From assembly GCA_001593865.1 (NCBI GenBank), contig LUCB01000007.1, positions 35,282-99,281 on the forward strand: a DNA stretch of 64,000 nucleotides, in the 5' to 3' direction. Numbering within the stretch: position 1 is the first letter of the stretch; each line of letters opens with the position of its first letter. The DNA comes from Candidatus Bathyarchaeota archaeon B24. Lineage in GTDB: Archaea > Thermoproteota > CALKCG01 > B24. The translations under genes were made by a program, and so were the position numbers. The notes beneath the pieces are model-generated. The model saw only the letters and a list, made by a program, of their open reading frames with translations. It ran no database searches and was not told the DNA's origin. Below are positions 6,445 through 13,310 of this stretch, piece after piece.

Positions 6445-7940
<1,496 letters not shown>

Positions 7941-8082: not shown

Positions 8083-10067
8083 ACACGTGGCGGCTGCTGG
8101 GTTCCCGAGTAGACCCGGCACGCTAAGCCGCCTGGTGGATGGCTCGGCTTGGGCGCCGAGGAAGGGCGTGGCAAGCTGCGATAAGCCCCGGGGAGGCGCA
8201 TGCAGCCTTAGATCCGGGGATCCCCGAATGGGACCTCCTGCCATGGGTTAATAGCCCATGGCGCTCCCACCCTCCTCGGAGGGGGGAGTGGGAACCCCCC
8301 GAACGGAAACATCCAAGTAGGGGGAGGAAAAGAAACCATCATGGGATTCCCTGAGTACCGGCGAGGGAAAGGGGAGGAGCCCAAACCGAACCCCTGGGGC
8401 TGACAAACCCCACGGGGATGTGGTGTAGAGGCTCAGCCTATAACGCCCACCACCCTGGGAAGCCGAAGTGGCCTGGAACGGCCCGCCATAGAGGGTGATA
8501 GCCCCGTAGGCGTAACCAGGGTTAGTGGGCTGGCTGAGCCGGAGTACCACACCTTGGTTTTGGTGTGGGAATCTGGGTGGAACCAGCATCCAAGGCTAAA
8601 TACGTCCCAAGACCGATAGCGCACTAGTACGGTGACGGAAAGCTGAAAAGCACCCCGGAAGGGGGGTGAAAAGAGCCTGAAACCAGGCGGCGATATCCGT
8701 GTGGGGCCCGAAAGGGTGGATCCACCCCGAAGGAAGCCGTGGCGACACGGTTGTACGAGGGGTGGGGACCAGGGTCCCACGTTCCGTTTCGAACCACGGG
8801 CCGGGGAGTTCACCTCCACGGCGAGCTTAAGGGCTTTAAAGCCCGTAGGCGGAGGGAAACCGACAGGTCCGCAGCCGGGCCGCGAGGCTCGGTGAGGGAC
8901 GGGGTCTGAAAGGGCCCGGAGTCGTGGGGGTGATAACCAGAAACCGGGCGATCTAGCCCTGGGCAGGGCGAAGCCGGGCGAAAGCCCGGTGGAGGCCCGA
9001 AGGGATGTTGACGTGCAATTCGCTCCTCTGACCTGGGGCTAGGGGCCAAAAGCCAATCTAGCCCGGTGATAGCTGGTTCCTCCCGAAATGGGTCGCAGCC
9101 CAGCCTCAGGCGAGGTAGCCTAGGGGGTAGAGCACCGATAGGGTGGCAAGGGTCCGAAAGGGCCCACCACCCTTTCGAACTCCGAATCCCTAGGCTCCGT
9201 AGACCCTGGGAGACGGGCGTCGGGGGGTAAGCTCCCGAGCCGCGAGGGGAACAACCCGGACAGGGGTTAAGGCCCCTAAATGCCGGCTAAGTGTTAACGC
9301 GAAGGGAGTCCCCAGCCTGAGACAGCTGGGAGGTAGGCTTAGAAGCAGCCACCCTCTAAGCAACGCGTAACAGCGGACCAGCCGAGGCTGGGGGCCCCGA
9401 AAATGGACGGGGCTTAAGCCGGCTGCCGATACCCCTGGGCCCGGCGTACACGCGCCGGGTTGGTAGGGAGGCGTCGCGGCTGGGTAGAAGCCGAGCCGTA
9501 AGGTTCGGTGGACCGGCCGCGAATGTAGATCCCGGTGGTAGTAGCAGCAAAGAGGGGTGAGAATCCCCTCCGCCGCAGGGGCCAGGGTTCTCCGGCAATG
9601 CTCGTCAGCCGGAGGTTAGTCGGTCCTAAGGCGGCCCTTAACCGGTCGCCGCCGAAAGGGAAACCGGTTTATATTCCGGTACCGTAGGGGTACGTGCGGC
9701 GACGCAGGCTCCCAACCTGACGCCTCCGGGTAGGCTGAGTGGGGTTGCCGCCCCATTTAACCGCTGAAGCCTGGGGAGTGCCGTAAGGGCGAGAACCAGG
9801 TGAAGGCGGGAATAGCCTCCCGCATAGGGGGGTTCAGCCGATCCCGGGGGACAGGGAAAAGGGTTGGGAGAAGGATCCCCTACGACCGTACCTAGAACCG
9901 ACACAGGTGCCCCTGGGTGAGAAGCCTAAGGCGTGTCGGGTCAACGCGGGTGAGGGAATTCGGCAAATTAGCCCCGTACCTTCGGAAGAAGGGGTGCCTG
10001 CGGTCTTAGCCCACGAAGGCTGGGACTGCAGGTCGCAGTGACAAGGGGGCCCCGACTGTTTAATAAA

Positions 10068-10691
10068 CGGGTAGAGACGCCGGATGAGGCTGAAGAATTT
10101 TAAATAGACCTCGTCTTCATTAAGAGATATGATAATGAGTAGTGAACAGCGAAATGACGCATATATCATGGGATTATTTTATGGAGACGGCACAACCTAC
10201 AAGACGAAGAAAGGCGCCTATCAGGTTTGGATAGACCAGTCAGATAAAAACAAGGATATACTAGAATATGTGGCGGTACCTAAGCTTAGGCTAATGAACG
10301 TCAAACTGTTCTTCTATCAATTTATTGATAGAAGACATCGGTTAAAGAAATGGAGATTGGCTCTTTATTCAAAAACGTTCTTTGATAGATTAAAAAAGGT
10401 CAAGCGAGATCCTTTAGGATATTTAAAGACGCTTAACGATGATGAAGTAAGGTATTTTATTGCAGGCTTGTTCGACGCTGAAGGCACTAAGACCGATAGA
10501 CTAGTTATATATAACAGAAATCTCGAACTCTTACAGGAGATAGGAAGACGACTTAGCAATTTTAATATTCACTCTAAAATTTACAAGTTCGGCTCAATTT
10601 ATGGTTTACAAATTCACAGGAAAAGCTCTGTGAAGATTTTCCTTAAAATAATACCGTCTTACAGGTTGACGGCGTCCTCGCCCGGTTAAAA
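10068..10691 (+). mobile_element. 23S rRNA intron 1 (archaeal-type) encoding a LAGLIDADG endonuclease
   Basis: Interrupts conserved TTTAATAA|AACATAGG; ends contain CGGG..GACGCC / GGCGTC..CCCG complementary strands; exact junction ambiguous within an A run. Confidence 0.9.
10129..10689 (+). CDS. LAGLIDADG homing endonuclease (intron 1)
   Basis: Two motifs: AYIMGLFYGDGT and YFIAGLFDAEGT. Confidence 0.9.
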   Translation: MIMSSEQRNDAYIMGLFYGDGTTYKTKKGAYQVWIDQSDKNKDILEYVAVPKLRLMNVKLFFYQFIDRRHRLKKWRLALYSKTFFDRLKKVKRDPLGYLKTLNDDEVRYFIAGLFDAEGTKTDRLVIYNRNLELLQEIGRRLSNFNIHSKIYKFGSIYGLQIHRKSSVKIFLKIIPSYRLTASSPG

Positions 10692-10817
10692 AACATAGGT
10701 AGCCGCAAGCCCGAAAGGGTGTGTACGGCTGCTGAATCCTGGCCAGTGCCGGTACCTAAAACCCGGGTCCAACCGGGCTAAGGGCCGGTAAACGCCGGGA
10801 GTAACTCTGACTCTCTC

Positions 10818-11377
10818 AACGGAGCCGCCTCGCCGTCGAATAGATTTAAGAGAGTTCTGATGGTATGAACATTAGTAGTGTTGAGTGAGGATTATACGAA
10901 AGGATATGTTTCAGGTTTTATAGACGCTGATGGAAGCTTCTCAGTAAGCATCAAGGTTCAAAGAGATGTCCGCTATGGTGTCAGAATAGACCCAGTGTTT
11001 AGCGTGACCCAGAGAAACAGGGAAGTTCTAGAATTTCTTAGAAGAGCTTTAGGCTGTGGTAGGATTATTAAGAAGCCCGGTCAGGAAAACTTATGGCTGT
11101 ATATCGTGGATAGAGGAGCTTAACGGTAAGCTACTGCGGTTTCTAGAAGATGGATGCCGGCTGATCGTTAAGGATAGGCAGTTGAAGCTCTTTACCGAAA
11201 TAGTAAAGGGGCTTATCGAGAAGCAACACTATAGTTATGAAGGAATTAAACAGCTTGTTCATCTATCTTATGAGCTTTCATCTTTAGGCGGTAAAGCCGT
11301 AAGGCGTAGAAGCCTGAACGAGGTTCTCACGATAATAGAGGAATATGAGATGAGACGGCGGGACGCTCCGGGAGAAA
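10818..11377 (+). mobile_element. 23S rRNA intron 2 (archaeal-type)
   Basis: Interrupts GACTCTCTC|AAGGTAGCC (near E. coli 1923-1927); CGGAG..CGCCGTC / GACGGCG..CTCCG complementary ends. Confidence 0.88.
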
Positions 11378-11382
11378 GGTAG
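10878..11382 (+). pseudogene. LAGLIDADG homing endonuclease (intron 2), frameshifted
   Basis: GYVSGFIDADGSFSVSI in ORF 10878..11123; the C-terminal half (IEELNGKLLRFLEDG...) continues in another frame (11056..11382). Confidence 0.75.
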
Positions 11383-12411
11383 CCAAATGCCTTGTCGGAT
11401 GACATCCGACGTGCATGAATGGATCAACGAGGGCCCCGCTGTCCCCACCCGGGACCCGGTGAAGCTACCTGGTGGTGAAAAGTCCACCGTCCCCCAGCGG
11501 GGTGAGAAGTCCCCGTGGAGCTTTACTGCAGCCTGTTGTTGGGGTATGGCTGTGGATGCGTAGGGTAGGTGGGAGCCTTTGAGCCAGCCCTTCCGGGGGC
11601 TGGGGAGGCGCCGATGAAACACCACCCTTCCACGGCTGTACCCCTAACCTGGGTGCCAAACCCGGGGACAGCAGCAGGTGGGCAGTTTGCCTGGGGCGGC
11701 GCCCCCTTGAAAAGATATCGAGGGGGCCCTAAGGCCAGCTCAGGCGGGTCGGAAACCCGCCGTAGAGGGCAAGGCCAAAAGCTGGCCTGACTGGGTCCTT
11801 CACAGTAAGGGACCCAGGGGTGAAAGCCGGGCCTAGCGATCCTCCATGACCCCACTGGTGGGGGCTGGAGGTGACAGAAAAGTTACCCCGGGAATAATTG
11901 GCTTGTCGCGGGCGAGAGTTCACATCGACCTCGCGGCTTGGTACGCCGTCGTCGTCCCTTCCCATCCTGGCGGTGCATAAGCCGCCAAGGGTGAGTCTGC
12001 TCGCCTATTAAAGGGGAATGCGAGATGGGTTTAGACCGTCGTGAGACAGGTCGGACTCTACCTGCTGGGGGTGCTGGCCGCCTGAGGGGAGCCCGTCCTC
12101 AGTACGAAAGGAACGGGGCGGGGTGGCCTCTGGTGTACCAGCTGTCCGGTAGGGCAAGCTGGGCAGCCACGCCGCTGGGGATAAGGGCTGAAGGCATCTA
12201 AGCCCGAAGCCCCTCCCGAAAATAGGCGGCCATTCCTAGGCGTAGGAGGCCCGGCGACGGGTCTCATGCCTAGGACGAGGGCTGGGGTAGAACACCCCGT
12301 TGATGGGGTGGGGGTGTAAGCCGGAAGGTCTTCGGACCGACCGGTTCAGCCCGCCACTCCCAATCGCCCGAGGTGCTGGGTCGAAAAAGGAGCCTAGCAG
12401 CTGCGTGAAAT

Positions 12412-12497: not shown

Positions 12498-13310
12498 TTG
12501 GCCCATAGTTGGGATGTCCCCTCCATAGACCCGGCTGAGACGACCGAGGAGATCTGCCGCTTCATAAGGGATGTGGTCGATAAGGCCGGGGCTCAGGGGG
12601 TCGTCGTAGGCTTAAGCGGGGGAGTAGACAGTAGCGTTACAGCGGCTCTGTGCGTTAGGGCTTTAGGGGCTAGTAGGGTGTTAGCGCTTCTGATGCCTAC
12701 ATCGTTCACGCCTAAGAGAGACGTGGAAGACGCTATGGACCTGGCTAAGAGTCTTGGCGTCGAGTATAGAGTCATACCTATCGACGATATGGTCAAGGCT
12801 TTCCTGAACGCTCTACCGTATAAGCATGGGGATCCATCGTATAGGATGCCGGCTGCAAACCTCAGAGCCAGGGTCAGAATGGTCATACTGTATTATCATG
12901 CAAACCTCATGAGGCGGCTTGTAGCGGGCTCGGGGGATAGAAGCGAGCTTCTAATCGGATACTTCACCAAGTACGGTGACGGGGCTGTAGACTTTTTACC
13001 GATAGCTCATCTCTATAAGACCCAGGTTAGGGAGCTGGCTAGGTGGCTTGGAATACCTGAGCGTATAGCCTATAAACCCAGTAGCCCCCAGCTGTATCCG
13101 GGCCATAGGGCAGTGGACGAGCTGCCGGCGGATTATCCGGTTCTGGACAAGGTTCTGGTAGGGTTGTTCGAGCTTAAGCTAAAACCCAGAGAGGTGGCGG
13201 AGAGGCTTAACGTAGCCGAGGAGCTGGTCTCGGAGACCCTGAGACGCTACGAGTCGACCATCCATAAGCGGAGACTACCGCCGATGCTTAAGCCCCTACC
13301 GGCTCTGTAG
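12498..13310 (+). CDS. nadE: NAD+ synthase
   Basis: GLSGGVDSSV P-loop, AANLRARVRM, GSGDRSELLIGYFTKYGDGAVD. Confidence 0.95.
   Translation: MAHSWDVPSIDPAETTEEICRFIRDVVDKAGAQGVVVGLSGGVDSSVTAALCVRALGASRVLALLMPTSFTPKRDVEDAMDLAKSLGVEYRVIPIDDMVKAFLNALPYKHGDPSYRMPAANLRARVRMVILYYHANLMRRLVAGSGDRSELLIGYFTKYGDGAVDFLPIAHLYKTQVRELARWLGIPERIAYKPSSPQLYPGHRAVDELPADYPVLDKVLVGLFELKLKPREVAERLNVAEELVSETLRRYESTIHKRRLPPMLKPLPAL

What the first reader, a model, noticed from the sequence alone, without database searches (positions are those of the whole stretch)
11503..12055. 23S rRNA with a rewritten peptidyl transferase centre
The central loop of 23S domain V departs from near-universal sequence at about a dozen catalytic-core positions, while flanking conserved blocks (GGGTTTAGACCGTCGTGAGACAGG, the P-loop CTGGGGCGGC, GAGCTTTACTGCAGCC) are intact. 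By-eye E. coli mapping: C2055U, A2062U, G2447A, C2452U, A2453U, C2499G, U2500C, A2503U, U2504C, U2554C, C2573U, U2609A. A2450, A2451, C2501, G2505, U2506, G2583, U2584, U2585 and A2602 are retained. Random decay would not concentrate changes in the most constrained nucleotides and spare the rest, so this looks like a naturally re-engineered catalytic core. Many of these positions (2447, 2452, 2453, 2499, 2500, 2503, 2504, 2062) are known sites of PTC-antibiotic resistance. I cannot confirm novelty offline.
Basis: partly seen in the sequence, partly recalled or inferred. Interest (0 to 1): 0.97.

Follow-up and report, generated by a model that had tools for sequence, protein, structure and literature searches.

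The report
Archaeal ribosome with rewritten catalytic surround
A lineage of hot-spring archaea carries a real, single-copy ribosomal RNA in which about ten almost-never-changing bases around the protein-making active site have been exchanged as a set, and an unrelated archaeal lineage has independently made half of the same exchanges, so the 'universal' active site can be rewired if its parts change together.

Summary
All 12 base calls are right, but A2062U, U2554C and U2609A are ordinary in Thermoproteota and archaea normally have A, not C, at 2055. Related genomes and 17 metagenome contigs share the core change, so it is not assembly error. The catalytic bases (A2450, A2451, C2063, C2501, U2506, U2585, A2602, G2251/G2252, G2553) are untouched. 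The changes fall on a second-shell network: C2452/U2500/U2504 becomes U/C/C, A2453-C2499 becomes U-G, G2509-C2579 becomes U-A. A 'Bathyarchaeota' group (W2) has nearly the same set. Thermoproteales (type P), including Pyrobaculum, share G2447A, U2500C, U2504C, G2509U/C2579A and C2055, yet two trees reject a common origin of W and P, indicating convergence. Pyrobaculum's ribosome is published as having a 'divergent active site' (text not readable here), so this is a new, more extensive variant of a known kind. 'Re-engineered catalytic core' overstates it: the packing around conserved catalytic bases is rewritten.

The parts
6445..7937 (+). 16S rRNA gene; decoding-site and anti-SD motifs look normal
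   Evidence: cmscan RF01959 1496 bits; read by eye
8111..12383 (+). 23S rRNA gene, intron-containing, single copy in the assembly
   Evidence: cmscan RF02540 2757 bits, model 1-2987
10068..10688 (+). approximate extent of intron 1 (domain IV) encoding a LAGLIDADG protein (ORF 10129-10689)
   Evidence: 621-nt unaligned insert; PF14528 E=4.7e-15
10827..11375 (+). approximate extent of intron 2 (after H69) with a LAGLIDADG ORF broken by a frameshift (10878-11123 and 11056-11382)
   Evidence: 549-nt insert; PF00961 E=6.9e-10; 5-base gap against L177/L191
11503..11510 (+). PTC strand 2055-2062: U2055, U2062 (2062U common in relatives)
11893..11899 (+). PTC strand 2447-2453: A2447, U2452, U2453; A2450 and A2451 kept
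11945..11957 (+). PTC strand 2499-2511: G2499, C2500, U2503, C2504, U2509, C2511; C2501, G2505 and U2506 kept
11996..12000 (+). A-loop: U2550 (unusual), G2553 kept, C2554 (common in the phylum)
12019..12025 (+). H90 strand: U2573, and A2579, which pairs with U2509
12031..12055 (+). U2585 and A2602 kept; A2609 (common in the phylum)
12100..12114 (+). sarcin-ricin loop with G2661A (12108); GNRA loop kept as GAAA

Best explanation
This is a functional archaeal 23S rRNA whose peptidyl transferase centre keeps the catalytic and tRNA-contacting bases but has a rewired second shell. SHOWN by sequence: in the window's order (type W1) the mutually contacting pyrimidines C2452/U2500/U2504 became U/C/C, the A2453-C2499 contact became U-G, the H90 pair G2509-C2579 became U-A, U2511 and C2573 became C and U, and G2447 became A; the A2450-C2063-C2501 triple, A2451, U2506, U2585, A2602, G2251/G2252 and G2553 did not change. 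SHOWN: a Bathyarchaeota-labelled group (W2) has almost the same set, and Thermoproteales (type P, including the genus whose ribosome is solved in 9E71) share G2447A, U2500C, U2504C, G2509U/C2579A and C2055 while resolving 2453 and 2501 differently. INFERRED: these bases form one interaction network, so a first change (perhaps G2447A, U2504C or C2452U, each tolerated singly in bacteria) relaxes constraint on its partners and the set is replaced stepwise by mutually compensating changes, giving an alternative stable packing of the A-site cleft that still presents A2451 and the tRNA CCA ends correctly. INFERRED consequence: normal peptide-bond chemistry, with altered (probably reduced) sensitivity to A-site-cleft inhibitors and possibly altered macrolide and nascent-chain sensing through 2062/2503. 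The selective driver is unknown; heat alone is unlikely because W2 includes soil genomes.
For: Register and single copy. Fixation across independent assemblies. Retained catalytic bases and coupled pair states per group: (2509-2579 GC to UA in W and P; 2454-2498 GC to AU in L008). Census: 106 of 401 Thermoproteota genomes matched; states fall into canonical, P, K and W types with almost no mixtures. Independent origin of W and P: 23S tree without PTC columns, AU p=0.001; uL3+uL4+uL23+uL2 tree, AU p=2.7e-6. Coincidence of derived positions in W1 and P: 10 shared of 32 and 29 in 1482, p=7e-11, six of them in or next to the PTC. Contact network in H. marismortui 50S simulations: C2452-U2504, U2504-U2500, U2500-C2452, U2500-A2055, C2499-A2453 hydrogen bonds (PMC4652758). 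Tolerance: over 85% of PTC-ring positions accept some substitution, the least tolerant being C2063, A2450 and C2501 (PMC7049736); C2452U, G2447A, U2500C and U2504C are each viable in T. thermophilus (PMC7345174).
Against: No structure, expression or biochemical data for this lineage. The contact network is taken from a haloarchaeal simulation with a drug bound. 2453-2499 does not keep a consistent isosteric pair across groups (AC, AA, CC, UG, UU, UC, UA), and U2511C leaves a C.A opposite A2577, so not every change is demonstrably compensated. The hypergeometric test assumes independent sites. Both trees have compositional heterogeneity and long branches. rRNA modifications, which could alter the bases chemically, were not examined.
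Confidence: 0.78

Rival explanations
1. Lineage-wide resistance: the PTC was remodelled by selection from naturally occurring A-site-cleft inhibitors, and the changes are stacked resistance mutations.
For: G2447A, C2452U, U2500C, A2453G, A2503G, U2504C and others occur among T. thermophilus PTC mutants assembled from antibiotic selections (PMC7345174); A2062U is a macrolide-resistance change (PMC7049736).
Against: U2500C, U2504C, A2503G and A2453G gave no tiamulin resistance in that study; the set also includes changes with no drug role known to me (G2509U/C2579A, U2511C, G2661A, H71). Fixation over families and environments, including soil and hot springs, needs a persistent selector. Drug-producing or exporting genes were not searched for.
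Confidence: 0.2
2. Neutral drift: the second shell is not functionally constrained in these archaea, and the changes are independent substitutions.
For: Many PTC positions tolerate mutation in vitro (PMC7049736); PTC variation is widespread in archaea.
Against: The same five or six positions changed to the same bases in two lineages that trees separate; states occur as blocks, not mixtures; the changed pair 2509-2579 stays Watson-Crick.
Confidence: 0.12
3. Artefact: sequencing or assembly error, a pseudogene, or wrong alignment register.
For: The window is from a draft genome of 37 contigs; the second intron ORF has a 5-base gap against close relatives.
Against: Same bases in other genomes and 17 metagenome contigs; covariance score in the normal range; gapless register; single copy.
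Confidence: 0.02
4. Common ancestry: the P and W sets descend from one ancestral rewritten PTC, and canonical groups reverted or are misplaced.
For: Five or six identical derived states in and next to the PTC.
Against: AU tests reject W+P as one clade in the 23S tree (p=0.001) and the four-protein tree (p=2.7e-6); reversion of the whole block in several canonical lineages would be needed.
Confidence: 0.15

Closest known systems
Pyrobaculum calidifontis ribosome (PDB 9E71/9E6Q/9E7F; Nissley et al. 2025, doi 10.1038/s41564-025-02065-w, 'divergent active site')
   Same: Its uL3 matches over its full length the uL3 of a genome carrying type P 23S (G029, 681 bits); type P shares A2447, C2500, C2504, U2509-A2579 and C2055 with the window's type (the window's own genus has U2055).
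   Different: Type P keeps C2452 and has C2453 and A2501; the window has U2452, U2453, G2499, C2501, U2503, C2511, U2573 and A2661. P lacks the uL3 finger tryptophan that the window's genome keeps. The paper itself could not be read here.
Type W2: 23S of 'Candidatus Bathyarchaeota' RSWS8, BA_3, BA_24, BA_7 and families f19, f37, f39, f47
   Same: A2447, U2452, U2453, C2500, C2504, U2509-A2579, C2511, U2573, C2575.
   Different: U2499 instead of G2499, G2448, G2661 kept, U1955 kept, G2550 mostly kept.
Single-base PTC mutants of T. thermophilus selected with antibiotics (PMC7345174)
   Same: G2447A, C2452U, U2500C and U2504C individually viable at the same positions.
   Different: Single laboratory mutations, not a fixed coupled set.
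Partial variants in Methanomassiliicoccales and Diapherotrites/Micrarchaeota
   Same: U2452, U2453 and sometimes C2503/C2504.
   Different: Keep G2447 and U2500; different partner states; separate lineages.

Membership tests
Archaeal 23S rRNA (RF02540) | Covariance-model match over the full length above the gathering score | tested here: met
   2757 bits, model 1-2987
Functional peptidyl transferase centre | A2450, A2451, C2063, U2506, U2585, A2602, P-loop G2251/G2252 and A-loop G2553 conserved | tested here: met
Functional peptidyl transferase centre | Peptide-bond formation by these ribosomes | not testable with these tools
   needs purified ribosomes
Divergent-PTC archaeal ribosome, Pyrobaculum kind (type P) | A2447, C2453, C2500, A2501, C2504, U2509-A2579 | tested here: not met
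   A2447, C2500, C2504 and U2509-A2579 met; C2453 and A2501 not met (U2453, C2501)
Divergent-PTC archaeal ribosome, W kind defined here | A2447, U2452, U2453, C2500, C2504, U2509-A2579, C2511, U2573 | tested here: met
Pseudogene or secondary copy | Broken helices or another intact 23S copy | tested here: not met
   single match in the assembly; few non-standard pairs in domain V
Drug-resistant ribosome | Reduced inhibition by A-site-cleft antibiotics | not testable with these tools
   needs translation assays

The most novel reading that the evidence does not exclude
A previously undescribed ribosome class (type W) in which the C2452/U2500/U2504 second-shell triple and its neighbours are replaced as a unit, reached independently of the Pyrobaculum solution. 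It would show that the 'universal' PTC second shell is one of several interchangeable packings and, in the window's order, that even sarcin-ricin loop G2661 is replaced.
Probability: 0.5. Interest if true: 0.82.

Novelty: new variant of a known kind. Interest (0 to 1): 0.68.

Why it matters
The PTC is usually treated as frozen since the last common ancestor; C2452 and A2451 are listed at 100% conservation in the table of PMC7345174. Natural lineages that replaced the second shell as coordinated blocks, at least twice, while sparing the catalytic bases show which identities chemistry requires and which are only mutually required. That makes the question of why the PTC is conserved directly testable, gives ready-made multi-base templates for ribosome engineering where single mutants fail, and predicts altered antibiotic binding.

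Tried and rejected
Assembly error, pseudogene and wrong register: rejected. Uniqueness to this genome: rejected. Thermophily as sole cause: unlikely, because the W2 type includes genomes whose record titles point to soil (BA_3, BA_24, BA_7). Common origin of W and P: rejected by two trees, with the caveats given. uL3 co-change in the window lineage: only two uL3 columns are W1-specific, and the tryptophan finger is kept; the tryptophan is lost in P and K instead. Changed decoding site in 16S: none seen by eye. The Nissley 2025 paper and preprint were not held, so whether W-type sequences appear in its survey is unknown. Modification guides, tRNA CCA ends, uL16 and read support were not examined.

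Full report
WHAT IS THERE. Window 8111-12383 is one archaeal 23S rRNA gene matching RF02540 from model position 1 to 2987 with 2757 bits, directly downstream of a 16S gene at 6445-7937. It is the only 23S match in the 1.73 Mb assembly. Two introns of about 621 and 549 nt interrupt domain IV, with LAGLIDADG ORFs; they lie outside the finding.

OBSERVATION CHECK. cmscan aligns the PTC without gaps at high posterior probability, and MAFFT with E. coli rrlB gives identical numbering. G2661A turns the GAGA tetraloop into GAAA, still of GNRA form. In the PTC ring as defined in PMC7049736, 6 of 32 near-invariant positions are changed, against 22 of 1038 elsewhere (p = 1e-4).

NOT AN ARTEFACT. The same state occurs in a congeneric genome (L014), in a confamilial genome (L015, with C2055) and, with A2062, A2503, C2055 and G2448, in another family of the order (L004). 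An exact PTC pattern for the order found 17 contigs in JGI metagenomes, which carry the same type with small differences.

WHAT IS KEPT. In all groups tabulated, A2450, A2451, C2063, G2061, G2505, U2506, G2553, G2583, U2584, U2585, A2602, G2251 and G2252 are canonical. In the window, C2501 is canonical too. The E. coli mutational map ranks A2450, C2063 and C2501 as least flexible (PMC7049736). Peptide-bond chemistry is therefore probably unchanged; 're-engineered catalytic core' is too strong.

WHAT IS CHANGED, AND HOW IT HANGS TOGETHER. Simulations of the H. marismortui 50S list hydrogen bonds C2452-U2504, U2504-U2500, U2500-C2452, U2500-A2055 and C2499-A2453 (PMC4652758). The window replaces these partners together: U2452/C2500/C2504, U2055, G2499-U2453. 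In helix H90 the pair G2509-C2579 is U-A. U2511 and C2573 change together to C and U. U2511C leaves a C.A opposite A2577, so compensation is not complete.

DISTRIBUTION. A census of 401 Thermoproteota genomes gave 106 with a PTC matching the search pattern; many draft genomes lack a readable 23S and some groups do not fit the pattern. States fall into blocks. Canonical: G2447, C2452, A2453, C2499, U2500, C2501, U2504, G2509. K (family f7): canonical with C2500 and A2501. P (families f12, f22, f27, f43, f57): A2447, C2453, C2500, A2501, C2504, U2509. W: A2447, U2452, U2453, G or U2499, C2500, C2504, U2509. W1 is the window's order; W2 comprises families f19, f37, f39 and f47 together with records titled Candidatus Bathyarchaeota, including soil genomes. 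C2452U without the rest occurs in Methanomassiliicoccales and several DPANN groups, and Micrarchaeota show G2505A.

INDEPENDENT ORIGINS. A 23S tree built without the PTC, H71 and SRL columns makes W1 and W2 clades and places P apart with K. Holding W and P together is rejected (AU p = 0.001), while W1+W2 is undecided (p = 0.46). A tree of uL3, uL4, uL23 and uL2 agrees (W+P p = 2.7e-6; W1+W2 p = 0.18). Of 1482 positions conserved in canonical genomes, W1 has 32 fixed derived positions and P has 29; 10 coincide (p = 7e-11), six of them in or next to the PTC: 2447, 2453, 2500, 2504, 2509, 2579. Five of those six reached the same base. This is best read as convergence through a coupled network. 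Caveats: composition bias, long branches, and site independence assumed in the test.

MECHANISM. Proposed: one tolerated change loosens the second-shell network, and partners then change stepwise until a new mutually stable packing is reached. Single changes G2447A, C2452U, U2500C and U2504C are viable in T. thermophilus (PMC7345174), so entry points exist. Group states include apparent half-way sets (L182/L185: U2452, C2504, U2500; K: C2500 without C2504). Expected consequences, all inferred: normal catalysis, altered binding of A-site-cleft inhibitors, and possibly altered nascent-chain or macrolide sensing through 2062 and 2503.

PRIOR ART. The ribosome of Pyrobaculum calidifontis (9E71, identified as such in PMC12605026) was published as having a 'divergent active site' (Nissley et al. 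2025, title from reference lists; text not held). uL3 of P-type genome G029 matches that structure's uL3 over its full length, so type P is very probably the published kind. Whether W sequences are in that survey is not known. Filed as a new variant of a known kind.

VERDICT. Real, functional by all sequence criteria tested, and more extensive than the structurally solved example; not unique and not a change of catalytic nucleotides.

Noticed in passing
window 12100-12114: Sarcin-ricin loop reads CAGTACGAAAGGAAC: G2661A, fixed in the window's order in the sequences examined (GNRA form kept); W2 and Thermoproteales keep G.
   Followed up: partly
window 10827-11375: The second 23S intron's LAGLIDADG ORF is split by a frameshift; two metagenome relatives (L177, L191) have 5 more bases at that place. 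Decay or an assembly slip.
   Followed up: partly
H71, E. coli 1950-1955 in the window's order: Four normally invariant bases next to the A-site tRNA path are changed (A1950, G1952, C or U1954, A1955), together with U2550 in the A-loop stem.
   Followed up: no
L008 and L171 (genome G030): One W2 genome holds two different 23S genes; L008 has G2454A with C2498U, a compensatory pair at the base of H89.
   Followed up: partly
L042, L054, L082, L087 and similar (Micrarchaeota): Micrarchaeota read ATCGATATGG at 2499-2508, implying G2505A, at another usually invariant PTC base.
   Followed up: no
L009, L017, L019, L165, L166 (family f7): PTC with only U2500C, C2501A and G2055, plus a G2509-U2579 pair, otherwise canonical; uL3 finger tryptophan lost in this group and in type P.
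   Followed up: partly
L155 (G318, family f14): A P-type 23S in a genome of a family whose other members did not show it; probably contig contamination.
   Followed up: no
window 12498-13310: ORF directly downstream with an SGGVDSS motif, by eye an NH3-dependent NAD synthetase.
   Followed up: no
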